Shown piece by piece: positions 23,792 through 39,247 of a DNA stretch of 64,000 nucleotides. Within the stretch, counting starts at the first letter, position 1; every line of letters starts with the position of its first letter. Origin of the DNA: Nostoc sp. FACHB-280 (GTDB lineage: Bacteria > Cyanobacteriota > Cyanobacteriia > Cyanobacteriales > Nostocaceae); contig NZ_JACJSD010000010.1 of assembly GCF_014697615.1 (NCBI RefSeq), positions 62,001 to 126,000 of the forward strand. Reading direction: 5' to 3'. The notes under the pieces were generated by a model. The model had not been told where the DNA came from, made no database searches, and worked only from the letters and a program-made list of their open reading frames with translations. The position numbers and the translations under genes were made by a program.

Positions 23792-24313
23792 ATGACAACT
23801 CGTTTAGTAAAAGCAAAACTCATCGCCACAGAACAAGCTGCGCCAGATATCGAGTTTATGTTTAACCCCAGCCAGTTAGACTTCTCGCAGCAAATTAATT
23901 TGACCAAAAGTAGTGGTGCGCGTACCGGAAGAGGTTTACCAAAAGTTAGTTTTGCTTACCCAGAACCGTGCAGACTCAGTATTAATAACATTATCTTTGA
24001 TACCTACGAGAGCGGTACTACTGTCCTCACCCATCTGAAAAAATTTGAAAAAGCCGTTAACTTTGCCGAAGCTGGAGCAGGTAAAGAAAAACGCCCACCC
24101 GTATATATATTTACCTGGGGCGACCAGCAATATTTACGCTGTTTTGTCCAATCTCTTAACTACAGCCTGACTTTGTTTTTACCAGACGGTACACCAGTAC
24201 GTGCCAAAGTTAACCTCACTCTAGAAGAAGTTGATGAATCAATCTCTCAGCCAGGAATGGGAGCATCTAGCAGCGTAGACCGCACTGGCGACAGCAGAAG
24301 TAGCCGCAGTTAA
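23792..24313 (+). CDS. CIS tube-initiator / baseplate hub protein (Cis7/Afp7-like)
   Basis: 173 residues from MTTRLVKAKLIATEQAAPDI; a longer reading from 23744 adds only intergenic repeat sequence. The conserved core of the CIS tube-protein family is visible: IEFMFNPSQLDFSQQINLTK, PEPCRLSINNIIFDTYE, THLKKFEKAV, RPPVYIFTWGDQQYLRCFVQ and DGTPVRAKVNLTLEEVDE. This protein sits between inner tube and spike. Afp7/Pvc7 relatives end in a LysM domain; here the protein stops after a short Ser/Arg-rich tail, so the LysM is absent. It is the first gene of the baseplate run. Confidence 0.85.
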   Translation: MTTRLVKAKLIATEQAAPDIEFMFNPSQLDFSQQINLTKSSGARTGRGLPKVSFAYPEPCRLSINNIIFDTYESGTTVLTHLKKFEKAVNFAEAGAGKEKRPPVYIFTWGDQQYLRCFVQSLNYSLTLFLPDGTPVRAKVNLTLEEVDESISQPGMGASSSVDRTGDSRSSRS

Positions 24314-24522
24314 TTGCCCTTCGGGCGAGGCAGAAGGCAGAAGAAAAATTTTTGAATTAAGAATAAAGCCTTTTTGACTCGCCGATTTGGGTTTAAGTCC
24401 CCTCTAATCGGCCTCCTGCCTCCTGCCTTTCAACTCCTGCCTCCGTTAATTCGACCTTTGGGGAATAGCCTGTAATATGCTATCTTCACTAGGCTATTGG
24501 CAACCTCCTCTTGCCAATATGT

Positions 24523-26487
24523 ATGCCTGTTCTTTACATACCTGAGCTACTATTACAAATTGATAGCACTAATGCTTCTGCTGATTTGCTCAATGATATT
24601 TTGCAAATCACAGTTGAAGAAAGTCTGCATTTACCAGGAATGTTTACTTTAGTAATCCGTAATGATTACTTTCCAGGACAGACAACAGAAGCAACTTGGA
24701 AGCATCAAAAATTATTTGCAATTGGTAAGAAAATTAAAATTGGCTTTGTTTCCAGCACGACGCAAAACGCAGATTTTGAAGATGCAGAGCAAGGTTACGT
24801 CTTAGAAGGGGAAATTACAGCCATAGAAACTGAGTTCACCAGTGGTTCTCAAGCTCCCATCATCATTCGTGGCTATGATATGTCCCACCGCTTGCATCGA
24901 GGACGTTATAATCGCTCCTTTCAAAATGTTACTGATAGCGATGTGGTAAACCAAGTTATCGGTGAAGCAGGCATTAGTGCAGGTACAGTTACTTCAACCA
25001 CTATTGTTCATGATTACGTCTTTCAAGAAAATCAGACCAATATGGAATTTTTGCGGGAACGAGCCGCCCGCCTCGGCTTTGAACTTTATGTGCAGGATAG
25101 TAAGTTAAACTTTCGCCAACCGGCTCAAGATGAATCTTTATCACTCAAATGGTTAGAAGATATCCATAACTTCCGGGTTCGTGTTAGTAGTGCCGAACAA
25201 GTCAGTTCTGTGGAAGTAAGAGGCTGGGACTACTCTACTAAAAAGTCTATTGTTTCTACAGCCTCCACAGAACAGGTGATTACAGATACAGATAACGGCA
25301 AAGGCAGTTCAAGCAGCACAAAATTCACCATCAAGCCAAAAATGATTGTGGTAGACCAGCCTGTGTTTAGTGTGAATGAAGCTGCAAAAATCGCCCAAGC
25401 ATTGTGTAATGAACTAGGCGGTGAATTTGTTGTAGCTGATGCTGTCGGTGAAGGAAATCCCGATATCAGGCCAGGGAAAGTAATTAAATTGACAGATATG
25501 GGCAGTTACAGTGGTAGTTACTACGTTACCGAAACTCGCCATTTGTTTCATGAGCGAAAATTTGTCACTGAGTTTAGTGTGCGGGGTTTGCGTTCTGGAG
25601 ATTTATTAGCCACCCTCTCTCCCCAAACACGTCTGCAAGCAGGACAAACTCTATTGGTAGGTGTAGTGAGTAACAATCAAGACCCAAAAGGTTGGGGTCG
25701 TGTGCGGGTGAAGTTTCCAACTTTAACTGAAGAACATGAAAGTAATTGGGCAAGAGTTGTGAGTGTTGGTGCAGGCCCAGGAAGAGGTTTTGACTGTTTA
25801 CCAGAAGTCAACGACGAAGTTTTAGTCGCCTTTGAACACGGTGATATTCATCGTCCTTATGTCATTGGTGGTGTGTGGAATGGCACAGATGCACCACCAG
25901 AAGCCGTTGCTGATACTGTTGTTGGTGGCAAAGTGCGTCTACGAACTTTTAAAACCCGTGTTGGGCATAAACTCCAATTTGTTGAGGAAGACAAAGGCAC
26001 TAAAAAAGGCGCATATCTGCAAACAGTAGACGGTCATAATTTGCGGATGAATGACAGCGATAAATTTGCTGAATTAGAAACTACAGGCGGTCACAAATTT
26101 CGCTGTGATGACAGTAGTAAAACTATTAGCTTGACTTCTACAGGTGACATTACAGTTAAATCTGGGACAACCGGAACAGCCAAGAAAATTAGTGTCAATG
26201 GTGGTGAAATTGCTTTAACTGCAACACAGAAAATTTCTTTAACTGTAGGGGGTACAAGTATTGAACTTACAACTAGCGGTATTACCATGCGAACAACTGG
26301 AACTTTGAGTATACAAGCAGCTAGTTCCATCAGCGTGCAATCTGGAGGTTCTTTGAGTGCTAATGCTGGTGGCGCACTCTCCGCTAATTCTAGTAGTTCG
26401 ATTAGTGTCAATGCTGGCGCTGCTGTCAGTATCAACGGTGCAGCTTCCGTCGGCATTTTAGGCGGGATAATTCGGTTGAATTGTTAA
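24523..26487 (+). CDS. CIS spike protein (VgrG / gp27-gp5 fusion, Cis8-like)
   Basis: 654 residues from the ATG at 24523; a TTG at 24511 is an alternative start. The N-terminal ~370 residues form the gp27-like hub (MFTLVIRNDYFPGQTTEATW, DSDVVNQVIGEAG, FLRERAARLGFELYVQDSKL, SGSYYVTETRHLFHERKFVT). A gp5 OB-fold follows (LVGVVSNNQDPKGWGRVRVK, FPTLTEEHESNWARVVSVGA, GFDCLPEVNDEVLVAFEHGD, YVIGGVWNG). A C-terminal beta-helix is made of short Ser/Gly/Ala repeats (ISVQSGGSLSANAGGALSAN). No extra effector domain is fused at the C-terminus. As trimer it forms the membrane-piercing spike and is sealed by the PAAR tip encoded next. Confidence 0.92.
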   Translation: MPVLYIPELLLQIDSTNASADLLNDILQITVEESLHLPGMFTLVIRNDYFPGQTTEATWKHQKLFAIGKKIKIGFVSSTTQNADFEDAEQGYVLEGEITAIETEFTSGSQAPIIIRGYDMSHRLHRGRYNRSFQNVTDSDVVNQVIGEAGISAGTVTSTTIVHDYVFQENQTNMEFLRERAARLGFELYVQDSKLNFRQPAQDESLSLKWLEDIHNFRVRVSSAEQVSSVEVRGWDYSTKKSIVSTASTEQVITDTDNGKGSSSSTKFTIKPKMIVVDQPVFSVNEAAKIAQALCNELGGEFVVADAVGEGNPDIRPGKVIKLTDMGSYSGSYYVTETRHLFHERKFVTEFSVRGLRSGDLLATLSPQTRLQAGQTLLVGVVSNNQDPKGWGRVRVKFPTLTEEHESNWARVVSVGAGPGRGFDCLPEVNDEVLVAFEHGDIHRPYVIGGVWNGTDAPPEAVADTVVGGKVRLRTFKTRVGHKLQFVEEDKGTKKGAYLQTVDGHNLRMNDSDKFAELETTGGHKFRCDDSSKTISLTSTGDITVKSGTTGTAKKISVNGGEIALTATQKISLTVGGTSIELTTSGITMRTTGTLSIQAASSISVQSGGSLSANAGGALSANSSSSISVNAGAAVSINGAASVGILGGIIRLNC

Positions 26488-26596
26488 TTTGGTCAATGGT
26501 CAATAGTCATTGGTCATTTGTCCTTTGTCATTTGTTCTTCTCCCCCTTGCACCCTGCACCCTGCCCCCTACCTCTTCTTCTACTCCCTAAAAAATT

Positions 26597-26884
26597 ATGT
26601 TTCCCGCAGCAAGATTAACTGATTTAACTGTCACAGGTGATCCAATTACTGCGCCTGGTGTGCCGAATGTGTTAATTGCAGGTTTACCCGCAGCTTGTGT
26701 TGGCGATTTAGTAGCGGGGCCTGTGGTGACTGGTAGTATTGTAATGGGGTCGTTTACGGTTTTGATTGGTGGTAGACCTGCGGCGCGAGTTACATCTCAG
26801 GTAGCTGGTGTGAATACTGTCACAGGTGTGCCGTTAACTACTGTTGTGGGTATAGGTGCGCCGACGGTGTTAATTGGTGGTTGA
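26597..26884 (+). CDS. PAAR-domain spike tip (Cis10-like)
   Basis: 95 residues, a stand-alone PAAR-like protein: MFPAARLTDLTVTGDPITAP, NVLIAGLPAACVGDLVAGPV, TGSIVMGSFTVLIGGRPAAR and the closing GAPTVLIGG. It caps the spike trimer and can carry or dock effectors; this one has no fused effector. It lies 109 bases after the spike gene, with short ggtcatttgtc repeats in between. Its last 88 bases are overlapped on the other strand by the 3' end of the histidine kinase gene. Confidence 0.88.
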   Translation: MFPAARLTDLTVTGDPITAPGVPNVLIAGLPAACVGDLVAGPVVTGSIVMGSFTVLIGGRPAARVTSQVAGVNTVTGVPLTTVVGIGAPTVLIGG

Positions 26885-28590
26885 AAGGTAAAAGAGCCTT
26901 TACTCAGCATATTTTTTGGGACTTCCACATTCTTGCGAGCGGTGATGGGAATGTGAATGCAGAAAACTGTACCTTGTTCGGGTTCGGAGAAGCATTCTAT
27001 TTTACCGTTATGCTTTTCGATGATTTTGCGACAAATGGGCATTCCTAAGCCTGTACCTTTGCCAATGGGTTTGGTGGTGAAGAAGGGTTCAAAAAGGCGA
27101 TCGCGCACATCTTGGGTCATTCCTGAACCATTATCTTGAATCCGAACCACTACATAAGGCGCATTCGTCAATGTTTTACCATTTTCTAATGAGGTGCTAA
27201 TAGTAATCACCCCTTCTTTTTCTTGACCATCTAAAGCATCGATCGCATTGGCTAGAATATTCATAAATACCTGATTTAGTTGGCTGGGATAACACTCAAC
27301 TAAAGGTATGACATCATAATTTTTAATGACTTCAATTCCTAAGTTGCCACAGCTGGTCTTTAAGCGATTATTCAAAATTAGTAGAGTGCTATCAATACCT
27401 TCATGAATATCGGCTGGAGTCATTTGTGATTGTTCGGTGCGGGAAAAGTTGCGTAAAGATAACACAATCTCCCGGACACGCTTAATCCCTAAACTCATGG
27501 AACTGATTAGTTTTGGTAAGTCTTCTGAAACAAAGTCTAAGTCAATTTCTTCGCTGAGTTCTTGCGCTGCTGGAATATAATCGCAGTTATCTTGATAAAT
27601 ATGCACTAGACGCAATAAATCATCAACATATTGTTGAGCGTGGTTAATATTTCCACTAATAAAGTTGACTGGATTATTAATTTCATGGGCAATACCAGCA
27701 ACTAATTGCCCCAAACTTGACATTTTTTCACTTTGAATTAACTGTGCTTGTGTTTGTTGTAATTCATGCAGTGTAGTTTGGAGTTGTTGTGCTTGAATTT
27801 GGGCAATTTTCGCCGCTTCACAACTTTGTTCATAAAGCAAGGCTTTTTCAATCGCCACTCCCGCCTGCATTGCCAATATACTTAATAGTTTTAAGTCTCG
27901 GCTAGTATAATTAACCGCAGTTTCGCTACCAATTACAATTGCCCCAACTACCCGTTCTTCCACATTTAACGGCACACAAATCAAGGAATTGAATTGTTTA
28001 TTTTCTCCTAGATATCTGGGATAAGCGACAATATTGTTCACAATTTCTCCGCGTCCCATCTGTACTATATTACCAATAATGCCTTCGCCTAATTTTATCG
28101 GTTGCTGGAGATAACCGCTGCTACCAATTTCTGCGAGAATTTCAAAAACATTGGTTTTTTGATTTAATAATAAAATCGCGCCACCAGTTGAGGGAATTAA
28201 TTGAGCGGCTTCTTGGATGAGTAATCGAGAAACTGGGCGGAGATTGAGACTGGCAGTTACTTGAATGGAAATATCATGAAGTAAATCAATTTCCTGATAT
28301 CTTTCTAGCAGTTCATGGGCGAGATTTTTCTTCTCAGATTCTTGTTTGAGTGCATAGAGGAGGAGTGAAACAACACCAGATGCTTGTTGTGAACCGCGTA
28401 CCCAACCAATTACTTCACCAGCAAATTCTATTGGATGGGCGATCGCACAATTTTCTCCTGCTTGCCCGAAGAGTATTTCGCCTTCTGTATTTTCTATAGT
28501 AAACTGACAATCTATCGCTTTAGCAAAATCATTCAGAAGAGCTAATACATCCTTTTTTACAATCAGATTTCTGAAATTGCTTTTAACCAT
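26797..28590 (-). CDS. GAF-domain sensor histidine kinase inside the CIS module
   Basis: 597 residues. The N-terminal ~95 residues (VKKDVLALLNDFAKAIDCQF, GEILFGQAGENCAIAHPI) resemble a small sensor fold with a Cys-containing turn. A GAF domain covers about 105-250 (TGGAILLLNQKTNVFEILAE, LICVPLNVEERVVGAIVIGS). A coiled coil leads to H-box [14 protein letters not shown]-box NQVFMNILANAIDAL, G1 QDNGSGMTQD, FEPFFTTKPIG and GKGTGLGMPI. The kinase fold ends near IHIPITARKN, after which a 43-residue tail continues; its last ~29 codons are antisense to the PAAR gene. It is soluble, with no membrane segment. It lies opposite to all CIS genes and splits them in two blocks. No response regulator is adjacent. 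Confidence 0.88.
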   Translation of the reverse strand: MVKSNFRNLIVKKDVLALLNDFAKAIDCQFTIENTEGEILFGQAGENCAIAHPIEFAGEVIGWVRGSQQASGVVSLLLYALKQESEKKNLAHELLERYQEIDLLHDISIQVTASLNLRPVSRLLIQEAAQLIPSTGGAILLLNQKTNVFEILAEIGSSGYLQQPIKLGEGIIGNIVQMGRGEIVNNIVAYPRYLGENKQFNSLICVPLNVEERVVGAIVIGSETAVNYTSRDLKLLSILAMQAGVAIEKALLYEQSCEAAKIAQIQAQQLQTTLHELQQTQAQLIQSEKMSSLGQLVAGIAHEINNPVNFISGNINHAQQYVDDLLRLVHIYQDNCDYIPAAQELSEEIDLDFVSEDLPKLISSMSLGIKRVREIVLSLRNFSRTEQSQMTPADIHEGIDSTLLILNNRLKTSCGNLGIEVIKNYDVIPLVECYPSQLNQVFMNILANAIDALDGQEKEGVITISTSLENGKTLTNAPYVVVRIQDNGSGMTQDVRDRLFEPFFTTKPIGKGTGLGMPICRKIIEKHNGKIECFSEPEQGTVFCIHIPITARKNVEVPKNMLSKGSFTFQPPINTVGAPIPTTVVNGTPVTVFTPAT

Positions 28591-28906
28591 TTGCTCTCAT
28601 CCTGATTTTATTTCAGATTTTGCCTAAGCATCAGTCTTGTATACCTAATAGATGGACATTTTCATTTATTCTTGGCTATTTGTCACCCCTATAATTAGTG
28701 CCAAACAACTGCCATTTTTTAGGTATTTGCTGGGATTTTGTAAAATTATATTTTTAAATAAAGTTGATGCAACTCGATTATAAGTTACTCATTTCTGATA
28801 GTTCACCGTAAATTCATTGATTTTTGTACATTCAGTAAATGTACTGAGGCAAAATACTAAAAACTTTTCAAGACAGACGGACGCGGATGGAATTTCGGTG
28901 ATTGTC

Positions 28907-29024
28907 AGGACTTACGCACAGGCTACAGAAAATCGTAGACGCGATAGCGGCTTGCCGCAGGCTACCACAGAGGCGCAGAGTTCACGGAGAAATGAGAGTT
29001 TAAGAGGTGTTTTGCGTAAGCCCT
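28907..29024. mobile_element. MITE-like element (118 bp)
   Basis: Ends are near-perfect inverted repeats: AGGACTTACGCA at 28907-28918 and TGCGTAAGCCCT at 29013-29024 (11 of 12). Inside are an inner palindrome (gtagacgcgatagcggc, ttgccgcaggctac) and the accacagaggcgcagag repeat common in Nostocales. It has no coding capacity; the 69-codon ORF over it is not a gene. The rest of 28591-29169 is AT-rich, probably carrying the divergent promoters of the kinase and gp25 genes, though I cannot define them. Confidence 0.6.
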
Positions 29025-29169
29025 AATTGTAATAGATTCGCTGAAAGGTAAGGATATAGAATCACTTAGGATGTTGCCAAAAAGAAAGTTAACTCGACTT
29101 TTGGCGAATGGTATTAGTTTTAGCGATCGGCATAAAGTAGCGTAAACTGCTCATCACTGTGTACCTACC

Positions 29170-29571
29170 ATGCCAGAACTCAATCAAAATCAACACCTGG
29201 GTGCAGGCTGGTCGTTTCCGTTGCGGGTGAATGTCCAAGGAGGTCTGCAACTTAGTAAAGCAGAACGCAATATTGAAGAGTCGATGATGCTGATTTTGCG
29301 TACCGAGTTGGGTGAACGTGTCTATCGTCCTAACTTTGGTTCGCGGTTGTCGGAGTTGACTTTTGCACCGATGAACACTCAAACTTTATTACTTTTGCGT
29401 CTACACGTCCAAGAAGCTTTGGAAATGTGGGAACCGCGCATTGTTTTAGATGCGGTGCGTGCTGACCCAGATCCCCTGCGAGGTCGTGTAGATATTGTGA
29501 TTGAATATCATCCCAAAGATAGCCATGATTCGCGGAGTTTAGTATTTCCGTTTTATTTAAATGGTCAGTAG
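29170..29571 (+). CDS. CIS baseplate wedge protein, gp25/TssE-like (Cis9-like)
   Basis: 133 residues of the GPW/gp25 family, which connects baseplate wedges to the sheath. Diagnostic pieces are GAGWSFPLRVNVQGGLQLSK, NIEESMMLILRTELGERVYR, PNFGSRLSELTFAPM and the family's EPR motif in ALEMWEPRIVLDAVRADPDP. Length is normal. It starts the second block of baseplate genes after the kinase, and the J-like gene follows after 56 bases. Confidence 0.92.
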   Translation: MPELNQNQHLGAGWSFPLRVNVQGGLQLSKAERNIEESMMLILRTELGERVYRPNFGSRLSELTFAPMNTQTLLLLRLHVQEALEMWEPRIVLDAVRADPDPLRGRVDIVIEYHPKDSHDSRSLVFPFYLNGQ

Positions 29572-29627
29572 TCATTTGTTATTGGTCATTTGTCATTTGT
29601 GTGTTTTAACTAATTATTTTTAATATT

Positions 29628-31820
29628 GTGGAATTTGATTTTTTACCAAAATTACCCAAGTCTAATCTAGACGATCGCACTTTTAAAGATTTAGTTGATG
29701 AGTGTATTCTGCGGATTCCCCGCTATTGTCCAGAATGGACGAATTATAATCCCAGTGACCCAGGTATCACGCTGATTGAGCTATTTGCTTGGTTGACTGA
29801 CCAAATGTTGCTGCGGTTCAATGAAGTACCCAAGCGCAATTACATTACTTTTTTAGAATTATTGGGCGTTAGGTTGCAAGCACCAGCCCCTGCGGTGGCA
29901 GATATTACTTTTTATCTCAGTGCGGCTTTACCAGACACTTATACAATTCCGGCTGGGGTGGAGGTGGCGACAATTCGCACGGAAACAGAAGAGGCGATCG
30001 CATTCACTACAGATCGGCCTTTAATTATTGATAAACCACAAATTCGCCACTTTCTCACCTGTCCCACTGCTGATCAAAAACCGGAAATTTTGCGCGATCG
30101 CTTTACTAATTTATGGACGATGCGCTCTGATGGTGAGTGGTATGGTAGAGAGTTGGCACTGTTTGAAGAACAACCCCAACCCGGAAACACTTTTTATTTA
30201 GTGATTGATGGGGAATCTCAGTGCGAAGGAAATGTTCTCGCCTTGCAATTAAAAGGAGAAGCCGCCACCGCCACAGGGATTAACCCAGATATTCCGCCGC
30301 GCCGTTGGGAAGCTTGGAACGGGGTGGAATGGGAAGCAGTACTACTACAAGAATCGGATGATAGCACTAAGGGTTTTAGTTTTAGCGAATTGCTGACTCA
30401 AGGAATTAACCCCCTGCAAGGTGCAGATATTGTCCTGCATTTACCGCAATCTTGGCCTGTGACGACTTTCACCGCCTATCAAGGGCGTTGGTTGCGTTGC
30501 GTTTATACTGCACCCCAACCCAATCAACCAGGATATAGCAGTTCACCACGGATGATTGGTTTGGCTGTGAGATCCATTGGCGGAACGGTGGGTGCGAGTC
30601 AAAGTGAATTGATTCGCAATGAAATTTTAGGGGAAAGCGACGGTACACCGGGACAGACTTTTCAGTTACAAGGCGTTCCGGTATTGAACCGTCGAGAAGA
30701 TGAATATTTGATCATTTCACCACCAGGGGGAATTCCTCAACGGTGGTATGAAGTCAGCGATTTTGCTAATTCTCTTCCCCAAGATTTGCACTACACAATT
30801 GATTCGCGCACCGGGACGGTACAGTTTGGCCCGGTGATTCGAGAACCAGCCCAACTCCAGCAACAGACGGAATTAAGGAGGAGTGGTGGTTCGGCTCCGC
30901 TCACCAACCGGGAGTGGGGAGTGGGGAATATTCAGGAATTAGAAAGGCAATATGGGGCTGTTCCGCCGCGTGGGTCGGTCATTCGGATGGTTGCATACCG
31001 CACAGGTGGCGGGCGTAAGGGGAATGTGCAACGGGGGACGATTACCGTAGCGAAAAATGCGGTTCCTTATGTGGCGAGGTTGATTAACCATACACCTGCG
31101 CGTAACGGTTCAGATGCGGAATCTTTGGAAGATGCGGTGATTCGCGTTCCGGCGATGTTGCGAACCCGCGATCGCGCTGTGACTCCTGAAGATTTTGAAG
31201 TGCTGACCCTACAAGCTGGCGGTGGTGCGGTGGCGCGGGTGCGTTGCTTACCACCAACAACTACACAAGAGGCTGGAACCATCAAATTATTAGTTGTCCC
31301 GGCGGCGAATACAGATGCAATTAATCGTGGTGAAGGTATTGAACCGGAATTATTTAGTTTGAGTCCGCAACTACGCGACCAAATTATTGCTTATCTAGAT
31401 GAACGGAGGTTATTAGGAATCCAAGTTAAATTGCAAGCCCCGGAATATGTGGGGGTAGCCGTGCAAACCGAAGTTGCGCTGGAACCAGAATACAACCATC
31501 CTGCCGCCCAGCAAGAGATTTTGGGTAAGTTACGGGTGGCGTTGTATCGATTTCTTAACCCGATTACGGGGGGTCAGGATGGGAGAGGCTGGCCGTTTGG
31601 GCGACCTGTTTACCCTTCGGATATTGTCAATTTGTTCCAGCAATTCCCGGCGGTGCGGTATTTAGGGGTAGTGCAGTTGTTTGAATTACGCTATGTGGGT
31701 TCAACTTGGGTGCGATCGCTTCCCCAAAATCCGGTGATTGATCCGGGGGCGTTGGGTTTAATTTGTTCTTGGCAAAATACGCGGTTGCGTTCTGGTCATG
31801 TGGTCAATTTAATTCAGTAA
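29628..31820 (+). CDS. CIS baseplate protein J / gp6-like (Cis11-like)
   Basis: 730 residues from a GTG start. The N-terminus is FLPKLPKSNLDDRTFKDLVD, then RIPRYCPEWTNYNPSDPGIT and LIELFAWLTDQMLLRFNEVP, the standard opening of Afp11/Pvc11-type wedge proteins. Later pieces are PPRGSVIRMVAYRTGGGRKG, RDRAVTPEDFEVLTLQAGGG, VRCLPPTTTQEAGTIKLLVV and YPSDIVNLFQQFPAVRYLGV. At codons ~418-434 (30881-30928) the gene contains an in-frame stretch, SGGSAPLTNREWGVGN, encoded by an intergenic repeat that recurs identically at 47871-47899. It forms the wedge ring of the baseplate with gp7-like protein. Confidence 0.9.
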   Translation: MEFDFLPKLPKSNLDDRTFKDLVDECILRIPRYCPEWTNYNPSDPGITLIELFAWLTDQMLLRFNEVPKRNYITFLELLGVRLQAPAPAVADITFYLSAALPDTYTIPAGVEVATIRTETEEAIAFTTDRPLIIDKPQIRHFLTCPTADQKPEILRDRFTNLWTMRSDGEWYGRELALFEEQPQPGNTFYLVIDGESQCEGNVLALQLKGEAATATGINPDIPPRRWEAWNGVEWEAVLLQESDDSTKGFSFSELLTQGINPLQGADIVLHLPQSWPVTTFTAYQGRWLRCVYTAPQPNQPGYSSSPRMIGLAVRSIGGTVGASQSELIRNEILGESDGTPGQTFQLQGVPVLNRREDEYLIISPPGGIPQRWYEVSDFANSLPQDLHYTIDSRTGTVQFGPVIREPAQLQQQTELRRSGGSAPLTNREWGVGNIQELERQYGAVPPRGSVIRMVAYRTGGGRKGNVQRGTITVAKNAVPYVARLINHTPARNGSDAESLEDAVIRVPAMLRTRDRAVTPEDFEVLTLQAGGGAVARVRCLPPTTTQEAGTIKLLVVPAANTDAINRGEGIEPELFSLSPQLRDQIIAYLDERRLLGIQVKLQAPEYVGVAVQTEVALEPEYNHPAAQQEILGKLRVALYRFLNPITGGQDGRGWPFGRPVYPSDIVNLFQQFPAVRYLGVVQLFELRYVGSTWVRSLPQNPVIDPGALGLICSWQNTRLRSGHVVNLIQ

Positions 31821-31876
31821 CCTCTTGCATAGATATTTTTTGTCTCGCGCAAAGGCGCAAAGGCGCAAAGAAAGAT

Positions 31877-32905: not shown

Positions 32906-32989
32906 AAGTGCTGAGTGCTGAGTGCTGAGTGTTAAGTAAAATATATTCCCCCTATACCCCTACACCCTTACACCCCTGAACCCCCAATT

Positions 32990-34222
32990 ATGGAAATTCA
33001 CCCCCTAGAACGACTACAAATTCAAGATGGTTTATTAATTAACGCTGAACGGTGGAAGCGATCGCATGATTATCACCGTCAGAGGCAAAATATTCATTAT
33101 CAATCACTTCATGAACCGGGAATAGTTGAAGGTTTGGGGGTGAGTTTGATTCCTGCGCCGAAGGATGTACCATCACAATATAACGATGGGCGATGGTTAC
33201 AAATTCAGCCAGGAATTGCCATTGATGTGAATGGGAATCCGATTGTGGTTCCGCAACCGATAGACTTTCATATCTCGGCTGATATTACGGAAGAAAAACC
33301 CCGCTTAATTTATTTAGTTGTGCGTTATGTAGACCCAGATACTTTACAACGCAAACAAGTAAGTGAATTTGAAACAGAAACTTTTCGGATTGATGAAAAA
33401 ACAACACCGCCTGATGCTTTTGAGGTGGAGTTATGTCGAATTTTATTACAACCGGGATTAGTAACTTTAGAAAATCCCCAGGATGTATTTTATCCTAGTT
33501 TGAATAGTTTGGATTTTCGTTATCGGAAAATTGCGCGATCTCGTCCCACTAAGTTGGTGCGTGTGGCGCATCTTGATACTCAGGAAACTAAAGAAGGTAA
33601 TAGTTTTGCAAATCTCGCTTCTTTATTAAGATACACCGAAAGTCTTACCTGTACTCTCCAAGGAGATGAGCAAATTCCCCGCTTAAATTTTCCGCTTTTA
33701 GACCCAACGATAGCAATTAATTATGATTTGCTATTTATTACTGGGAGTGAACCATTAATTTTAAATGTGCAAGAATTAGCTAATCTCAAAAGTTATCTAG
33801 ATAGTGGTGGAGTTTTATTAGTTGAATCATCCACTGATGCTGTTGATAGATTAGAAAGCGTTTTAGAAATTACGGAAAGTTTAGCCACACCTTTAGAAGA
33901 TTTACGCCGACTTGATAAACATCATCCCTTACGAACACAACCATTTTTATTTGCTGCTTTACCAGCTATAAATCAAAAGCCTCTGCAAATTTTAGTTGCA
34001 GGTGGCATTGTTTTAGTTATTGGTGATTTATCCCTAGCTTGGGGATTAGATGAAAAGTTAACTTTACCACGAGAAACAATTCGCACGGCCCAAGAGTTAG
34101 GCATTAATATTCTCAACTTTGCCTGGAGTCGTAAGCGAATGACGCAATTAAGGCAACAAACTGCAATTCCTGTCTCAACTAAACCTGATGCTTTAAAAAA
34201 TATTTTCAACAAATTAGAATAA
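32990..34222 (+). CDS. CIS-associated protein with C-terminal DUF4159-like domain
   Basis: 410 residues. The N-terminal ~180 residues (HPLERLQIQDGLLINAERWK, GIVEGLGVSLIPAP, WLQIQPGIAIDVNGNPIVVP, EKPRLIYLVVRYVD) look like the beta-rich domain of baseplate or fibre-attachment proteins seen in cyanobacterial CIS loci. The C-terminal half (VRVAHLDTQETKEGNSFANL, YDLLFITGSEPLILNVQELA, NLKSYLDSGGVLLVESSTDA, HHPLRTQPFLFAALP) matches the DUF4159 fold, a glutamine-amidotransferase-like domain of unknown role. No catalytic triad is evident. It is 84 bases after the gp7-like gene, separated by short ccctacacccttacaccc repeats, and in the same direction. A structural adaptor role is likely. Confidence 0.7.
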   Translation: MEIHPLERLQIQDGLLINAERWKRSHDYHRQRQNIHYQSLHEPGIVEGLGVSLIPAPKDVPSQYNDGRWLQIQPGIAIDVNGNPIVVPQPIDFHISADITEEKPRLIYLVVRYVDPDTLQRKQVSEFETETFRIDEKTTPPDAFEVELCRILLQPGLVTLENPQDVFYPSLNSLDFRYRKIARSRPTKLVRVAHLDTQETKEGNSFANLASLLRYTESLTCTLQGDEQIPRLNFPLLDPTIAINYDLLFITGSEPLILNVQELANLKSYLDSGGVLLVESSTDAVDRLESVLEITESLATPLEDLRRLDKHHPLRTQPFLFAALPAINQKPLQILVAGGIVLVIGDLSLAWGLDEKLTLPRETIRTAQELGINILNFAWSRKRMTQLRQQTAIPVSTKPDALKNIFNKLE

Positions 34223-34267
34223 TTTCTTAACTTTTGCATTTTTACTTTTTACTTTTAACTTTTTTAT

Positions 34268-36436
34268 ATGGCAGTTAATCTCGTTAATACTAAAATTTCT
34301 ACTCAAGTATTGAACTTTCAACCAGGTGGTTCACCAGCTTCTTTTGAAGTAACTGTAGTGAATGAAAGTAATCAGTTTGCTTCGTTTCAAATCGAAATCA
34401 TTGCGGCTGGTGGTGGTGAAAGTTTGGGGACTAATTGGTACAGTATTAAACCTGCGGTGAGTGCGAAAAATCCACCAGGGGATAGTACAAAATTTGAAGT
34501 CACAATTACTAATACACCTGTTGTCGGTTTTATCGGCAAAATGAACTTGATTGTGCGGATTTTTTCGCTGGAATTGCGGGATGAAGACAGACAATTGCTG
34601 CGGTTAATAGTTGAAGCAGGTGTTGGTGCTGTACCGATGCAGGTTGAGTTACCAATAAGAGAATTTACAACTCAACCACAGGGAACGATTGAGATTCCTG
34701 TGCGGGTTTTTAATCCTAGTCAGCTACCTGCGAGTGTTTCTTTAAAACCAATGGGACTTAAACCCCAATGGTTTATTAATGGCGATGAAAAACTATTATC
34801 AGTTCCGCCAGGTAATAAAGCAGAAACTTCATTTTTATGTCAGTTACCAATTGCAGAAGAAGTACCGAGTCAAGCCTATCTTTTTACTATTGAGGCTAAT
34901 TATCTCAATGGACTTCCATCTAGTAGTCGAGAAGGCGTAGTTAATGTTACTCCGTCTGGATTTGTTGATTTTCAATGCACACCAGAAAAACAACAAATAC
35001 CTGCATCTCGTCCTTGGCTACCACAATTAAAAGTTAATTATACTACTTATCAACTCGAATGCCAAAATCACAGCAATATAACTCAAAAGGTAAGTATTGA
35101 AGTTAAAGAAGATGAGGAAACCAAGCGCAAATGTTTTTGGGAAGTACACCCAGAATTTGTAGAAGTAAATCCGGGAGAAGTTAAAAATTTACAATTATTA
35201 ATTAGTAAGCAGCGGTGGTGGTTAGGGTGGAAGGAAAAACGGGCATTTAAAGTTAAGGCTATTGTACCAGATAACCGCGTCAATATTAATAATGAAAATC
35301 AATATTTACAACTCATTATTCATCCAATTTTACATCCTTGGCTACAGATGGGCTTAGGATGTCTTTTACTATATTTACTTTGGTATATATCATGGTTAAA
35401 TCCTGATAACCCATTTTTTGGTCATCGTGATGCTGTAACATTTGTACAGTTTAATGGAGTAGGCGATCGCGCCGTTAGTAGTTCCCAAGACCAAAGTATT
35501 ATTAGATGGAATATTGCAGGTTTTACTAATCCCTTGATTAACCAAGATGATGGCAGAATGGCTAAAAAGATTGGTAAATCTGTGCGAATTGTACGCTATA
35601 AACCTGTGAGTAATGATGTAGTCGCCGCAGGTTTAGAAAACGGAGAAATCCAAATTTGGGATGTACTTGGTGGGACAAAAAAACCAAAAGCAACTTTTTC
35701 ACTTGAAGGTGAGAAATCAGACCGGGTTTTAAGCTTAGAATTTAGCCAAGATTCTCACTTTTTATTTAGCGGTCATGGTAGTGGTGTAGTGGCGCAATGG
35801 GATGTAAATAGCGCATTGTTAGATGATGAGAAAACTATGACTAACCCGATTAATAGTAAGAATTTCAACTTTCCTGTATATGCTCTTGCTACTGTTGGAC
35901 ATGATAAACAAAATTTAGTCATTGCTGGGAGATATAACAATTTAGCTATCTGGAATTTTACCAAAGATAAATTATGGAAAATTCTCTATAATCGCCCAGG
36001 TAGCCAAAACGATTATATTGTCAGTATGGATAGTCCTGAATACAAACCACATTTATTAGCAACAGCCGATAATAGGGGACAAATTACATTATGGGATATG
36101 AACCAATGTTTAAAAAATAGTAACAATCAATGTCAAATTTTAGAGAAATGGTCTGATGGTCATGGTGAGAAAGCAGTGCGTTCTGTGGCGTTGAGTCGAG
36201 ATGGTTGTTATTTAGCTAGTGGTGGTGATGATAATCGCGTTATGCTATGGTCTTTAACTCAAGAAGGTAAAAGAATTTCTCCAGTTGGTCAAGAAATACG
36301 TAAGGAAAAACAAAGATTTAATAGTGTAGATGTGAAAGTTGTGAAGAATAAAATTTTGATTATTAGTGGTAATGATGATCATAAAGTCAGGTTAGATATT
36401 AGAGATTTAAATAAAAATGTTGGTTGTAAACAATAA
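34268..36436 (+). CDS. CIS-linked membrane protein: Ig-like domains, TM segment, WD40 propeller
   Basis: 722 residues, without signal peptide. Residues 1-350 hold two to three Ig-like/bacterial-CARDB-type domains (NLVNTKISTQVLNFQPGGSP, FEVTVVNESNQFASFQIEII, IEIPVRVFNPSQLPASVSL), closing with NPGEVKNLQLLISKQRWWLG and KRAFKVKAIVPDN. A single membrane segment lies at about 357-377 (PWLQMGLGCLLLYLLWYISW). A WD40 propeller at about 385-715 follows (HRDAVTFVQFNGVGDRAVSS, VQFNGVGD, DQSIIRWNI, AVRSVALSRDGCYLASGGDD, NRVMLWSL). It belongs to the CIS gene run by direction and spacing (45 bases). It is a good candidate for holding the baseplate on a membrane, with the propeller as interaction platform (inference). 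Confidence 0.75.
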   Translation: MAVNLVNTKISTQVLNFQPGGSPASFEVTVVNESNQFASFQIEIIAAGGGESLGTNWYSIKPAVSAKNPPGDSTKFEVTITNTPVVGFIGKMNLIVRIFSLELRDEDRQLLRLIVEAGVGAVPMQVELPIREFTTQPQGTIEIPVRVFNPSQLPASVSLKPMGLKPQWFINGDEKLLSVPPGNKAETSFLCQLPIAEEVPSQAYLFTIEANYLNGLPSSSREGVVNVTPSGFVDFQCTPEKQQIPASRPWLPQLKVNYTTYQLECQNHSNITQKVSIEVKEDEETKRKCFWEVHPEFVEVNPGEVKNLQLLISKQRWWLGWKEKRAFKVKAIVPDNRVNINNENQYLQLIIHPILHPWLQMGLGCLLLYLLWYISWLNPDNPFFGHRDAVTFVQFNGVGDRAVSSSQDQSIIRWNIAGFTNPLINQDDGRMAKKIGKSVRIVRYKPVSNDVVAAGLENGEIQIWDVLGGTKKPKATFSLEGEKSDRVLSLEFSQDSHFLFSGHGSGVVAQWDVNSALLDDEKTMTNPINSKNFNFPVYALATVGHDKQNLVIAGRYNNLAIWNFTKDKLWKILYNRPGSQNDYIVSMDSPEYKPHLLATADNRGQITLWDMNQCLKNSNNQCQILEKWSDGHGEKAVRSVALSRDGCYLASGGDDNRVMLWSLTQEGKRISPVGQEIRKEKQRFNSVDVKVVKNKILIISGNDDHKVRLDIRDLNKNVGCKQ

Positions 36437-36495
36437 TGATGAATACTTATAGACCTAGTTAAAATTCTTTTTACTTTTACCTTTTTACTTTTAAC

Positions 36496-36512
36496 TTTTT
36501 TTTGGGGGGGGG
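36496..36512 (+). repeat. T8G9 homopolymer tract at a ribosome binding site
   Basis: Eight T followed by nine G, ending five bases before the ATG at 36518, so the G-run occupies the Shine-Dalgarno position. Such runs are prone to length change, which would alter ribosome spacing. Confidence 0.7.
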
Positions 36513-36517
36513 TAAAC

Positions 36518-39247
36518 ATGACTGCCATAAATTCAAGAACTAGTAATTCCCAACTCGGTTTGAGTATGGCAGATGTGTTACTATTACCGCCACAACAGCG
36601 CAAAATTGTCCAGTGGTTAATTAAGCATCCTGATAGCGTTACCCTCACCCAAGTATCAATTCATTTAGATTTAAATCAACAAGCAACTTTAGCTTTATTG
36701 GATGAATTAGTTGACGAAGGTTTTGTCCAGCAAATATTAACTGGCGGTGAGGTGAAATATCGCGTTAATTTGGCAGCAAAACGCGGTATTCAACAACAAA
36801 ATCTGCAACAAACCCTTGCGCCGGGAAATCCTCTGGCGATTATTTTTAATCCTTCTGGTGATTATGCAGTCCAGGCTGGCGCAAAATTTGAAATTAATGT
36901 CACGGTAACAAATAAAGGTCAAGAAAGTGCGTTAATTGATATTTTTATTGATGAATTATCACCGCAATTAATTCAATGGTGTGATGCACCAAAGCAAAGG
37001 TTAGCACTAAGTCCTAACTCTGTGGGTGAGGTGTTATTTGAATTTCAAGTACCTATAACAGCAATTCCTAGCACTTATAACTATGCAATTGTTGTTGATG
37101 CGCCGCTACATTATCCTGAAGATACGCCAATTCGACATGGGGCAAAAATTCAGGTTTTACCTGCAATTGAAACGGTAGTTAGAGTTAGTGACCCGACTTT
37201 TAGCTTACTACCTTTAACGAGTTCGCGATCGCCTGCCAAAATTCCCCCAGGCGGAATCTTGCAAGTTAATGTCAATGTCCACAACCGTTCGGATAGGGTA
37301 GACAGATTTCGCCTCAGTTGTCTTGATTTACCCGAAGAGTGGGTGAGTATCCGCTATCCCGAAGGCTTGGAAACAGCCGGACTTGTTATCCCCAACATGG
37401 GTTTGAATCTCAACCCCGGCGAGAAGGGAGAAATTTTACTTCAATTCCAACCACCACTAGGCGCAAACGCCGGACTTTATTACCCCAGCATCCGCTTGTA
37501 TTCGGCGAATAATCCCGATTTGATGCTGTTGGACGTGATTTATTGGGAAATTTTACCCTCTTACCTGCTAAATGCAGAAATGCTGATTGTGGTAAATCGG
37601 GTGAGACGCAAAGGTGGAACTTTTGAAGTTAAATTGACGAATGCGGGTAATACTGTCAGGGAAATTACTTGTCAAGCGGTTCCTGTCGATGAAGATAAGG
37701 TGTGTACTTACGTAACTTCGCCAACGGTGTTGCGTGTATTACCAGGGGAAAAAGCTGCGACACAAGTGACAGTCACACCTGTGAAATGGTGGTATCGTCC
37801 CATGTTTGGTGCAGGAAGATTGCTGAATTTTCGCATTGAATTAACAGATCAGCAACAAATACCTTTACCAAACCCCGCTTTACCGGGAAGCTTAATTTGG
37901 GAACCGCGTCCCTGGTGGCAATTTTTACTTGTATTACTGACGGCTTTAGGAATTATCGGTGCGATCGCATTTTTGATTTGGCTGTGGTTATTCCGTCCCC
38001 CAGCAGTTCCTAAAATTCTGCAATTTCTCTCCTCCGATGCTACTTATCAAGCATCCAACAATGATTTTATTCGCTTAAGTTGGCAAATTCGCCACCCCAA
38101 AAAATTGCAAACATTAGCTTTAACTGGTTTATTTGCTGATGGTACGGCGGCGGTACAACCAATAGTTTATACCTTTAACGGTAAACTTCCCCAAGAACTA
38201 CAACCATTTTGTCAAATGGGTGCAGTCTTAACTTGTTCTAACGTCCCTACCGATGCGCGTAAACCAGGAGATTATACTTTTCAACTGCAAACATTTGCTA
38301 ATAATCCCGACTTACCAGCCGACACAATTAAAACCAATACGATTAAAATCGTCCCCATTCCCCCACCACAAATTTTAGAATTTTCCCCAGCACAATCGGT
38401 TTACCAAGAAGTGAAACCTAGCACTAATAAAATTAGTCCCGATACCATTCGCCTCAACTGGAAAATTAACGATTTAGATAAAATCAAAGAATTACGAGTA
38501 ATTGGGCGATCGCCAGAAAATTTAGTTAACAGTCCATTGCAAACTTATAATGTTACTCAAGGTATTCCCGATACAATCAAAGCCTTTTGTAATCAACAAG
38601 ATAATCAACTAACTTGTCGTAATATTCCTGCTAACAATCGCGGCGCAGGCAACTATATATTTGAACTGCAAGTATTTACTAAAACTGATACAGATAAACC
38701 AAGTATTTCTCAAAAAACAGACTTAGTTAAAGTCCAACCGTTACCCAGTAAAATTCTCGAATTTAAAATTGATGGGAACAACCCCTTACCAAAATATCCC
38801 ATAGTAATTAATCCTCTTAAACCAAACAAACCCCTCAACTTATCTTGGAAAGTCGAAGGTAGTAATAATATTAAAGTCGAACTTCTTCCCGCGCCAGGAG
38901 ATATCCCTCGTAACGGTACAATACCCTACCCAGTTAATCAACAACCCAGTAGCGAAACCATCACTTTACAAGTTACCAATTCCACTGGTGAAAAAGTAAC
39001 TCGTTCCGTCACCATCGAAACTTTTTTACCACCTAATTCCGCAACCAATCAACCACAACTACCACAATTAGAAGGCGCAAAACCAGAAATCCCAACTATA
39101 CCCCCACCACCAACAACCCAACCCTCCGGTACATCTCCCGGAACCTCACCATCTCCAACCAACAACACCGCACCTAATCCCAACTCTCCCACACCATCCC
39201 AACCAGATAAACTCTCCCCCTTAGAACTCCCCCCAGGATTTGATTAA
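36518..39247 (+). CDS. CIS-linked membrane protein: winged helix, Ig-like domains, TM segment, Pro-rich tail
   Basis: 909 residues. Residues ~17-85 form a winged-helix-like domain (ADVLLLPPQQRKIVQWLIKH, VTLTQVSIHLDLNQQATLAL, LVDEGFVQQILTGGEVKYRV). Ig-like domains follow to ~460; the last has VLPGEKAATQVTVTPVKWWY and GRLLNFRIELTDQ, matching the PGE-to-WW module just before the TM of the preceding gene's product. A TM segment covers ~467-492 (FLLVLLTALGIIGAIAFLIW). Beyond it are three repeats starting PKILQF/PQILEF/SKILEF, with WQI, WKI and WKV strands, and a tail rich in Pro, Thr and Ser from ~845. No signal peptide is seen. It is the last gene of the CIS run. It probably spans a membrane with its N-terminal half on the cytoplasmic side. 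Confidence 0.72.
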   Translation: MTAINSRTSNSQLGLSMADVLLLPPQQRKIVQWLIKHPDSVTLTQVSIHLDLNQQATLALLDELVDEGFVQQILTGGEVKYRVNLAAKRGIQQQNLQQTLAPGNPLAIIFNPSGDYAVQAGAKFEINVTVTNKGQESALIDIFIDELSPQLIQWCDAPKQRLALSPNSVGEVLFEFQVPITAIPSTYNYAIVVDAPLHYPEDTPIRHGAKIQVLPAIETVVRVSDPTFSLLPLTSSRSPAKIPPGGILQVNVNVHNRSDRVDRFRLSCLDLPEEWVSIRYPEGLETAGLVIPNMGLNLNPGEKGEILLQFQPPLGANAGLYYPSIRLYSANNPDLMLLDVIYWEILPSYLLNAEMLIVVNRVRRKGGTFEVKLTNAGNTVREITCQAVPVDEDKVCTYVTSPTVLRVLPGEKAATQVTVTPVKWWYRPMFGAGRLLNFRIELTDQQQIPLPNPALPGSLIWEPRPWWQFLLVLLTALGIIGAIAFLIWLWLFRPPAVPKILQFLSSDATYQASNNDFIRLSWQIRHPKKLQTLALTGLFADGTAAVQPIVYTFNGKLPQELQPFCQMGAVLTCSNVPTDARKPGDYTFQLQTFANNPDLPADTIKTNTIKIVPIPPPQILEFSPAQSVYQEVKPSTNKISPDTIRLNWKINDLDKIKELRVIGRSPENLVNSPLQTYNVTQGIPDTIKAFCNQQDNQLTCRNIPANNRGAGNYIFELQVFTKTDTDKPSISQKTDLVKVQPLPSKILEFKIDGNNPLPKYPIVINPLKPNKPLNLSWKVEGSNNIKVELLPAPGDIPRNGTIPYPVNQQPSSETITLQVTNSTGEKVTRSVTIETFLPPNSATNQPQLPQLEGAKPEIPTIPPPPTTQPSGTSPGTSPSPTNNTAPNPNSPTPSQPDKLSPLELPPGFD

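What the first reader, a model, noticed from the sequence alone, without database searches (positions are those of the whole stretch)
23792..39247. CIS baseplate module without sheath, tube, ATPase or cap genes
Seen directly: tube-initiator, VgrG-like spike, PAAR, gp25, gp6/J and gp7-like genes in one run, with three further proteins in the same direction. Absent from the window: sheath, inner tube, AAA+ ATPase, cap and tape measure. From known families: Afp/Pvc-type systems usually carry all of these together. Anabaena has a thylakoid-anchored CIS. Inference: this genome splits its CIS over at least two loci, with this locus as the baseplate-plus-membrane half, perhaps a membrane-docked type.
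Basis: partly seen in the sequence, partly recalled or inferred. Interest (0 to 1): 0.8.

Follow-up and report, generated by a model that had tools for sequence, protein, structure and literature searches.

The report
Cyanobacterial injection machine split across genome
This stretch of a cyanobacterial genome holds the baseplate half of a phage-tail-like contractile injection machine whose sheath, tube, cap and motor genes lie at other places in the genome, an arrangement that recurs in many cyanobacteria together with its own set of membrane proteins.

Summary
Window 23792-39247 encodes tube initiator, VgrG spike, PAAR, gp25, gpJ/Cis11, gpI/Cis12, a Cis13-type protein and two membrane-type proteins. 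The genome's only sheath, three tube proteins, caps and chaperones lie on contig C53; a Cis5-like tube and a long variable protein on C73; the AAA+ ATPase on C39. J and sheath both match best the Streptomyces coelicolor CIS, not Anabaena's thylakoid CIS. Of 386 cyanobacterial genomes, 22 have full-length J and 22 the matching sheath; 21 have both. Of 23 J/sheath sets, 12 are split (over 1 Mb apart in 4 few-contig genomes), 5 joined, 6 undecided. Two membrane proteins, WHTM in the window and a PBP-domain protein on C73, occur, at the thresholds used, in exactly the 22 J genomes. Relatives of the window anchors' Ig-TM half lie in 3 of 4 Streptomyces/Deinococcus CIS loci examined. Best reading: a functional IId-like CIS scattered over several loci and recruited to a membrane by bitopic proteins. 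Splitting and components are shown; docking and firing are inferred.

The parts
23792..24313 (+). tube initiator / Cis7-like protein, PF19266 CIS_tube; ORF reaches up to TTG 23744
   Evidence: Pfam 2e-21; 97% identical 173-aa ortholog in G352
24511..26487 (+). VgrG-like spike (Cis8)
   Evidence: NF033848 2.4e-109; PDB 9gtr_q 3.8e-57
26597..26884 (+). PAAR tip (Cis10)
   Evidence: PF05488 2.7e-13
26797..28590 (-). GAF/HATPase sensor histidine kinase inserted between PAAR and gp25; clade-specific, regulatory or a passenger
   Evidence: present in the near relatives L136-L141
29170..29571 (+). gp25-like baseplate wedge (Cis9)
   Evidence: PF04965 2.1e-20; only match in the genome
29628..31820 (+). 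gpJ/gp6-like Cis11, TIGR02243
   Evidence: 1.7e-204; PDB 9gtp_1K 4.9e-116; only match in the genome
31877..32905 (+). gpI/gp7-like Cis12 with an N-terminal Ig-like extension; ORF reaches up to TTG 31763
   Evidence: TIGR02242 7e-39; 9gtp_E 3.2e-7; extension weakly resembles the Ig domains of the anchors
32990..34222 (+). Cis13-type docking domain fused to a DUF4159 (ThuA/GATase-like) domain, no clear TM helix
   Evidence: CIS13_fam 7e-11, matched by 37 of 37 aligned orthologs; DUF4159 in 37 of 37; model pTM 0.81; best hydrophobic segment +2.48
34268..36436 (+). WD40TM: Ig-like domains, one borderline TM helix (aa 358-378), C-terminal WD40 propeller
   Evidence: helix +0.54 here, median -0.53 over 27 orthologs, not flagged by Kyte-Doolittle
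36518..39247 (+). WHTM: wHTH, three Ig-like domains, TM helix (aa 466-491), three Ig-like domains, disordered tail
   Evidence: found at E<=1e-10 in exactly the 22 J-carrying genomes of 386

Best explanation
The locus is the baseplate-and-anchor module of one functional contractile injection system of the Streptomyces-like (IId) kind that is encoded in pieces. In this genome the spike/baseplate/anchor genes lie here (C2), the sheath, tubes, caps and chaperones with a sensor/regulator pair on C53, a Cis5-like tube, a long variable protein and a membrane PBP-domain protein on C73, and the AAA+ ATPase on C39. The particle would assemble in the cytoplasm as in Streptomyces: baseplate on the VgrG spike, tube and sheath polymerise on it, caps close it. 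Inferred: the particle itself has no membrane helix (Cis13's tail is replaced by DUF4159) and is recruited to a membrane by bitopic proteins, WHTM and WD40TM (Ig-TM) and the PBP-TM protein, whose N-terminal domains face the cytoplasm and whose C-terminal Ig, propeller or ligand-binding domains face the periplasm or thylakoid lumen; a cue there triggers contraction. Shown here: component identity, splitting, co-occurrence. Inferred: assembly from the scattered loci, topology, docking, trigger and purpose.
For: Gene identities. Single matches for sheath, TIGR02243 and gp25 in the genome, on different contigs. Both halves match the same solved particle best: J 9gtp_1K 4.9e-116, Cis12 9gtp_E 3.2e-7, VgrG 9gtr_q 3.8e-57, sheath 8bky/9gtp 4.8e-117 (entries identified). 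Co-occurrence: J in 22 and sheath in 22 of 386 genomes, 21 shared; 36 of 36 held genomes behind 38 chosen named J loci have the sheath (at least one, G416=G376 by coordinates, is in both sets). In 5 of 23 sets the halves sit within 5-25 kb of each other, which ties them to one machine. J and sheath distances correlate, r=0.86, 0 of 9999 permutations reach it; G024 carries two sets and swapping them drops r to 0.67. WHTM and the PBP-TM protein occur in exactly the 22 J genomes at the thresholds used. Ig-TM relatives lie in 3 of 4 actinobacterial/Deinococcus CIS loci, one ORF each, the only matches among 1287 open stretches and none among reversed decoys (the first of the three was the lead, found).
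Against: G338, a one-contig genome, keeps J, spike, WHTM, WD40TM and PBP-TM without an orthologous sheath and with only a 296-aa ATPase frame: a lone baseplate module can persist. G125 has two J sets but one sheath. The ATPase next to the cap gene on C53 is a remnant in this genome, so decay is possible here too, although a full ATPase exists on C39. The C73 tube's best PDB match is Anabaena All3324 (4e-15), with the Streptomyces chain at 1.2e-12. The 421-aa cap has no PDB or NCBIfam match; it is named from the DUF4255 annotation of its Brasilonema ortholog. No shared upstream motif between the loci was found. The J/sheath correlation and the co-occurrence partly reflect shared ancestry; no housekeeping-gene or unrelated-gene control was run, and the genome search scores only the best first-look candidates per genome. 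The genome is a 113-contig draft: distances between contigs are minima. No expression or imaging data.
Confidence: 0.77

Rival explanations
1. The Ig-TM proteins (WHTM, WD40TM) are not anchors but membrane-acting cargo of the CIS, like Sco4256-4258 of S. coelicolor, which each have one TM helix, a similar N terminus and a variable C-terminal domain and whose loss empties most tube lumens and abolishes CIS-mediated cell death. (This rival concerns the role of the anchors only; it is compatible with the split.)
For: Same modular plan (Ig-TM half, variable C-terminal domain: WD40, Ig, peptidoglycan-binding) in the window and in the S. clavuligerus and Streptomyces NBC_01324 CIS loci; published phenotype of Sco4256-4258 (PMC10066040, section 11 read).
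Against: Homology to Sco4256-4258 themselves was not tested (sequences not held). WHTM is present in 22 of 22 J genomes, against 47 of 94 CIS-carrying Streptomyces for those proteins as reported; size (722 and 909 aa), large Ig arrays and a place beside the Cis13-type gene fit an adaptor better.
Confidence: 0.3
2. The locus is a decaying relic or a tail-less adaptor module left after loss of its own sheath.
For: G338 shows that such a state exists; an ATPase remnant lies beside the cap gene on C53.
Against: Here a matching sheath, three tubes, caps, chaperones and a full ATPase exist elsewhere; the ORFs of the run are open and 79-100% identical to those of G352, whose sheath and baseplate are also far apart; the split recurs on several branches.
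Confidence: 0.07
3. The split is an assembly or binning artefact of the 113-contig draft.
For: 6 of 23 sets remain undecided for this reason; the 40-kb limit is arbitrary and G215 (40.1 kb) and G193 (39.8 kb) fall on either side of it.
Against: In few-contig genomes the halves lie on one contig and at least 2.26 Mb (G352, one contig, same genus), 3.00 Mb (G340), 1.49 Mb (G241, one contig) and 1.31 Mb (G255) apart (shorter way round a circle); in the named Calothrix brevissima NIES-22 genome about 2.5 Mb, and on the complete plasmid ABRG53d of Pseudanabaena ABRG5-3 about 52 kb, with nif genes annotated in between.
Confidence: 0.03
4. The window holds a thylakoid-anchored CIS of the Anabaena type.
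For: Cyanobacterial host; CIS13-family N-terminal domain; the C73 tube's best PDB match is an Anabaena chain.
Against: J and sheath match the Streptomyces particle better by over 60 orders of magnitude; no clear TM tail in the Cis13-type protein; the Anabaena genes form one cluster (PMC8894136).
Confidence: 0.04

Closest known systems
Streptomyces coelicolor cytoplasmic CIS (CIS-Sc, subtype IId; PDB 9GTP/9GTR/9GTS, 8BKY)
   Same: Closest solved relatives of J, Cis12, VgrG and sheath; in S. clavuligerus sheath, tube, TAC-like, Cis5-like, LysM-position, VgrG, gp25, J and Cis12 homologs in this order; a bitopic membrane protein, CisA, is needed for firing (PMC12237407, abstract and passages); an Ig-TM relative lies in the S. 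clavuligerus cluster.
   Different: One cluster there, several loci here; Cis12 has an N-terminal Ig-like extension that the 190-residue Streptomyces chain lacks; a Cis13-type DUF4159 protein is present; a S. clavuligerus protein taken as CisA-like by its position has no detectable similarity to WHTM or PBP-TM.
Anabaena PCC 7120 thylakoid-anchored CIS (tCIS, PDB 7B5H)
   Same: Cyanobacterial; Cis13-family N-terminal domain.
   Different: Weaker sequence match (J 0.0018, sheath 1.7e-51); tCIS uses TM helices of Cis13 and a Cis12 extension and is encoded in one cluster, all3313-all3327 (PMC8894136, passages).
Afp / Pvc extracellular CIS
   Same: Shared core (recalled): tube, sheath, gp25, gpJ, VgrG, PAAR, caps, AAA+ ATPase.
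   Different: Sheath matches only at 1e-28 to 1e-47; no Pfam tail-fibre match among the run's proteins; not one cluster here.
Roseiflexus/Chloroflexota CIS, subtype IId
   Same: Same lineage label as the Streptomyces CIS (PMC12998442, passages).
   Different: Described as gene clusters; genes 'dispersed in multiple contigs' were reported there for MAGs, which I read as draft assembly.

Membership tests
Streptomyces-type CIS (IId) | Cis11 and sheath closest to the CIS-Sc particle | tested here: met
   J 9gtp_1K 4.9e-116 (next 6.1e-9); sheath 8bky/9gtp 4.8e-117, 8bl4 2.2e-114, then 9ezm 6.8e-90; no lineage tree with reference sheaths was built
Streptomyces-type CIS (IId) | core set tube, sheath, Cis5/7-like initiators, VgrG, gp25, Cis11, Cis12, cap, AAA+ ATPase in the genome | tested here: met
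Streptomyces-type CIS (IId) | genes in one cluster | tested here: not met
   C2, C53, C73, C39
Streptomyces-type CIS (IId) | CisA membrane adaptor | tested here: inconclusive
   no BLASTP similarity of a S. clavuligerus protein taken as CisA-like by position to PBP-TM or WHTM; PBP-TM has a similar plan, TM then extracytoplasmic-type domain
Streptomyces-type CIS (IId) | free cytoplasmic particles, stress-induced death of the producer | not testable with these tools
   needs cryo-ET and mutants
Anabaena tCIS | TM helices at the C-terminus of Cis13 | tested here: not met
   best segment of the window protein +2.48 on an approximate insertion scale, inside the DUF4159 fold; median +3.05 over 68 orthologs, of which L148 has an N-terminal segment at -4.44; single values printed for 30 of 68
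Anabaena tCIS | large Cis11 (cage and extra domains) and Cis19 crown | tested here: inconclusive
   Cis11 is 730 aa against a 1231-residue chain; Cis19 was not searched
Anabaena tCIS | anchored in thylakoid membrane | not testable with these tools
   imaging needed
Type VI secretion system | TssJLM membrane complex | not tested
   no dedicated search; Foldseek lists TssK 5y0e for the Cis13-type model at E 3e-3 to 1e-2 only
Prophage | capsid, portal, terminase genes beside the tail genes | tested here: inconclusive
   24 window proteins were scanned with Pfam, 23 of the 62 ORFs of 100 aa or more; none of the 14 outside the run has a phage head match, 2 of the 14 have no match; the other ORFs were not scanned
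Afp/Pvc eCIS | Afp13-type tail fibre and release from the cell | not tested
   no fibre match among the run's proteins; no genome-wide fibre search; release not testable here

The most novel reading that the evidence does not exclude
Cyanobacteria carry an old, widespread and largely uncounted class of contractile injection system that is permanently scattered over the genome, assembled in the cytoplasm and armed at a membrane by a fixed trio of bitopic receptors (Ig-TM-WD40, wHTH-Ig-TM-Ig, kinase-like-TM-PBP) reading the periplasm or thylakoid lumen, so that it works as a membrane-triggered, self-directed or lysis-coupled device. The Ig-TM receptor would be an unrecognised common component of IId systems in Cyanobacteria, Actinobacteria and Deinococcota.
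Probability: 0.35. Interest if true: 0.82.

Novelty: new variant of a known kind. Interest (0 to 1): 0.64.

Why it matters
[quoted passage not shown] A machine split like this one would probably be missed or reported as fragments (inference; their database was not checked). The split shows that the modules need not be co-transcribed from one operon, which makes their co-regulation testable. The co-occurrence of two membrane proteins with the baseplate gives named candidates for how a cytoplasmic CIS is brought to a membrane, an open question in Streptomyces and cyanobacteria, and the Ig-TM link joins the cyanobacterial proteins to proteins inside actinobacterial and Deinococcus CIS loci.

Tried and rejected

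Thresholds and dropped rows: 'full-length J' means E below 1e-150; 14 further genomes pass the family cut-off with weaker or fragmented hits and were counted as other CIS types. The sheath count uses >500 bits (lowest counted 517, next 243). PBP-TM uses >170 bits (lowest best match 176, next 77 bits; 44 of 386 genomes pass 1e-10 in all). G066 (one locus) has divergent Cis13-type, WD40TM and WHTM-like proteins at 21-28% identity that the genome search at 1e-10 did not report, so 'exactly 22' holds at that threshold. Of 38 named loci that I chose out of 80 for, 2 were not held. Between 298 and 344 genomes per phylum search are reported only as unlisted genomes without a match. Actinobacterial and Deinococcus loci: four out of many plasmid hits were examined; S. 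clavuligerus gave the lead, two of three further ones confirmed it; the TM helix of the Deinococcus protein was not checked.
Full report
Observation. The window (G000:C2:62001-126000 of a 7.64 Mb, 113-contig cyanobacterial genome) carries, on the + strand, a tube initiator (PF19266 2e-21), a VgrG-type spike (NF033848 2.4e-109), PAAR, gp25, a TIGR02243 baseplate protein (1.7e-204), a TIGR02242 protein, a DUF4159 protein with a CIS13-family N-terminus (7e-11), a WD40 protein and a 909-aa wHTH/Ig protein. A minus-strand histidine kinase interrupts the run and overlaps the PAAR gene by 88 bp. The 14 other window proteins that I scanned are cellular families or have no match.

Where the rest is. 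The genome has a single sheath match, on contig C53. The same contig holds three gp19 tube proteins, a Pvc16_N cap protein (1.1e-21) and a histidine kinase/LuxR-type regulator pair, two small chaperone-like proteins (one with a sub-threshold Phage_TAC_7 match) and a 421-aa protein that I take for a second cap because its Brasilonema ortholog is annotated DUF4255; it has no PDB or NCBIfam match of its own. C73 holds a fourth tube-like gene whose best CIS-named NCBIfam model is CIS5 (5.6e-29), followed by a long repetitive ORF that runs off the contig and preceded by a 745-aa protein with one TM helix and a PBP_like_2 domain. The AAA+ ATPase with the PF22977 winged-helix domain, taken from the relative G352, has its counterpart on C39 (63% identity, 792 bits); next to the 421-aa cap gene on C53 only a fragment remains. 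eCIS_core proteins lie on C43 (120.6 bits) and, weakly matching (38.3 bits), beside the ATPase on C39. There is one gp25 and one TIGR02243 match, so the pieces have no competing partners of these families in this genome.

One machine. J and sheath were compared with all solved structures independently: J matches 9gtp_1K at 4.9e-116 (next 6.1e-9), the sheath matches 8bky/9gtp at 4.8e-117; Cis12 and VgrG match 9gtp_E and 9gtr_q best. 9GTP, 9GTR and 9GTS are the S. coelicolor CIS (PMC12237407, data availability passage). Anabaena's tCIS gives 0.0018 and 1.7e-51. Against this pattern, the short C73 tube ranks Anabaena All3324 first (4e-15) and the Streptomyces chain 9gtp_a lower (1.2e-12).

Distribution. 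In a draw of 386 cyanobacterial genomes, full-length J (E<1e-150) occurs in 22 and the C53-type sheath (>500 bits) in 22; 21 are shared, G338 has J only, G066 has the sheath with a divergent J next to it. With the C73 tube, 21 of the 23 genomes concerned gave a match above 170 bits; G008 gave two pieces (119 and 104 bits) and G116 only 83 bits. The named-genome scan gave 291 J relatives; the best 80, all cyanobacterial by title, run from Nostoc to Gloeobacterales, Pseudanabaena, Planktothrix and Spirulina. Of 38 of these loci that I chose, 36 lie in held genomes and 36 of 36 have the sheath. Within the fetched stretch around J (22 kb at most, often less) the sheath is found in only 2 of 80 named loci.

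Split or joined. Using contig lengths, 12 of 23 J/sheath sets are split by more than 40 kb, 5 are joined within 5-25 kb and 6 cannot be decided (the limit is arbitrary, and for the window's own contig, at least 126 kb long, a 30-kb margin was assumed). Four splits are on one contig of few-contig genomes: G352 (same genus as the window, one contig, 2.26 Mb), G340 (3.00 Mb), G241 (one contig, 1.49 Mb) and G255 (1.31 Mb), taking the shorter way round. On a J+sheath tree the decided sets need at least four changes of state. Where joined, sheath and baseplate modules lie side by side, in four of the five cases on opposite strands (G066 is the exception), which is what ties the separated halves together. 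Module borders vary: in L141 (Nostocales LEGE 11386) the Cis5-like tube, initiator, spike, PAAR, kinase, baseplate and anchors lie in one stretch, whereas in G000 and G352 the Cis5-like tube and long protein sit elsewhere. Named examples: Calothrix brevissima NIES-22, baseplate near 0.12 Mb and sheath at 2.63 Mb (that the second place is on the same 8.5-Mb record is inferred from the 9.3-Mb genome size); Pseudanabaena ABRG5-3 plasmid ABRG53d, PBP-TM gene, spike, baseplate, Cis13-type and WD40TM genes at 3-26 kb and sheath at 72 kb, with nif genes annotated in between; Kovacikia minuta plasmid pA, 300 and 427 kb. Joined: Brasilonema octagenarum pBOCT2.

Co-evolution. Pairwise distances of J and sheath over the 23 sets correlate at r=0.86 (0 of 9999 permutations as high); G024 carries two sets, each grouping with the same relative in both trees, and swapping their partners lowers r to 0.67. 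Shared ancestry contributes to r; I ran no housekeeping control.

Membrane proteins. WHTM was found at E<=1e-10 in 22 of 386 genomes, exactly the 22 with full-length J, and in none of the 14 genomes that pass the TIGR02243 cut-off only with weaker types. The match holds where the gene is not next to the baseplate (for example G167, G376, G241, G087). The PBP-TM C-terminal part is found above 170 bits in the same 22, with the next hit at 77 bits. Carriers and non-carriers occur in one genus (g2, g5, g7), so this is not just one clade; no control with an unrelated gene was run. G066 carries divergent copies. WHTM is predicted as wHTH, three Ig-like domains, a TM helix at 466-491, three more Ig-like domains and a disordered tail (pLDDT 77.8, pTM 0.33); its helix is clear in the orthologs (median -1.64 over 22), that of WD40TM is borderline (+0.54 here, median -0.53 over 27). 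WD40TM and WHTM are homologous over their Ig-TM halves (hhalign 97.9%, 3.4e-13). The N-terminal extension of Cis12, absent from the 190-residue Streptomyces chain, resembles the same Ig domains weakly (80.8% and 68.1%); the annotated Deinococcus Cis12 gene (1017 bp) is long enough to have one too. Long N-terminal halves without an evident signal peptide (read by eye) suggest a cytoplasmic N-terminus; that is inference.

Link to other phyla. A BLAST of a S. clavuligerus CIS locus gave the lead. Profiles of WHTM and WD40TM, run against 1287 open stretches of four CIS loci on Streptomyces and Deinococcus plasmids plus reversed decoys, hit one ORF per locus in three of the four (S. clavuligerus, Streptomyces NBC_01324, Deinococcus actinosclerus), and none in S. 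cadmiisoli. The S. clavuligerus protein has Ig-like domains, a hydrophobic helix (by eye) and a peptidoglycan-binding domain and lies between ATPase and sheath genes; the Deinococcus one follows gp25-J-Cis12 directly. In S. coelicolor, Sco4256-4258 have one TM helix, a similar N-terminus and variable C-terminal domains; their deletion leaves about 85% of lumens empty and abolishes CIS-mediated death (PMC10066040, section 11). Whether these are homologous was not tested. CisA (SCO4242), a bitopic protein encoded downstream of the baseplate genes, is needed for firing (PMC12237407, abstract and passages).

Literature. Searches for cyanobacterial CIS, split or separate loci, scattered core genes, IId with cyanobacteria, and unlinked or dispersed CIS genes returned no paper whose listing or read passages describe a split CIS in cyanobacteria; most listed papers were seen in the listing only, six in passages; subscription papers and preprints are not in that library, and supplements could not be read.

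Verdict. The splitting is real and recurrent in a Streptomyces-like CIS of cyanobacteria; the anchors are strongly associated components of unknown exact role. A new variant of a known kind.

Noticed in passing
G000:C53:32564-32866 (L002 12564-12866): Fragment of the CIS ATPase (69% identity over about 100 aa) beside the cap gene, where the relative G352 has the whole gene; the complete ATPase is on C39.
   Followed up: partly
G338 (L086): One-contig genome with spike, baseplate, Cis13-type, WD40TM, WHTM and PBP-TM genes but no orthologous sheath and only a 296-aa ATPase frame: a natural baseplate-only case.
   Followed up: partly
window 39330-41675 and L009 3680-7708: CHAT-TPR (caspase-like family) genes beside both the baseplate locus and the C73 locus; the first is kept downstream of WHTM in 8 of 80 named loci, L136-L143.
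   Followed up: no
L009 10837-13455; L125; L217 6462-14057: Long, poorly conserved protein between the Cis5-like tube and the tube initiator; the gene at this place ranges from 187 aa (G125) to 2531-2533 aa (Pseudanabaena ABRG5-3, G340).
   Followed up: no
L216 (Oscillatoria nigro-viridis pOSC7112.04): 74-kb plasmid with gp25, J and Cis12, two CIS-type ATPases and several DUF4157 genes; it is not among the 20 listed of 138 sheath-matching plasmids.
   Followed up: no
window 53792-57919: DnaB helicase of 1375 aa with intein-splicing and LAGLIDADG domains, two stretches each: apparently two inteins.
   Followed up: no
L078 6843-7868 (G352): Ankyrin-repeat gene between the kinase and gp25, where the window has no ORF of that size.
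   Followed up: no
L009 7843-10080: PBP-TM protein has a kinase-like N-terminal region (Pkinase 2.2e-5, below the Pfam cut-off, in its Pseudanabaena ortholog): possible sensor for firing.
   Followed up: partly
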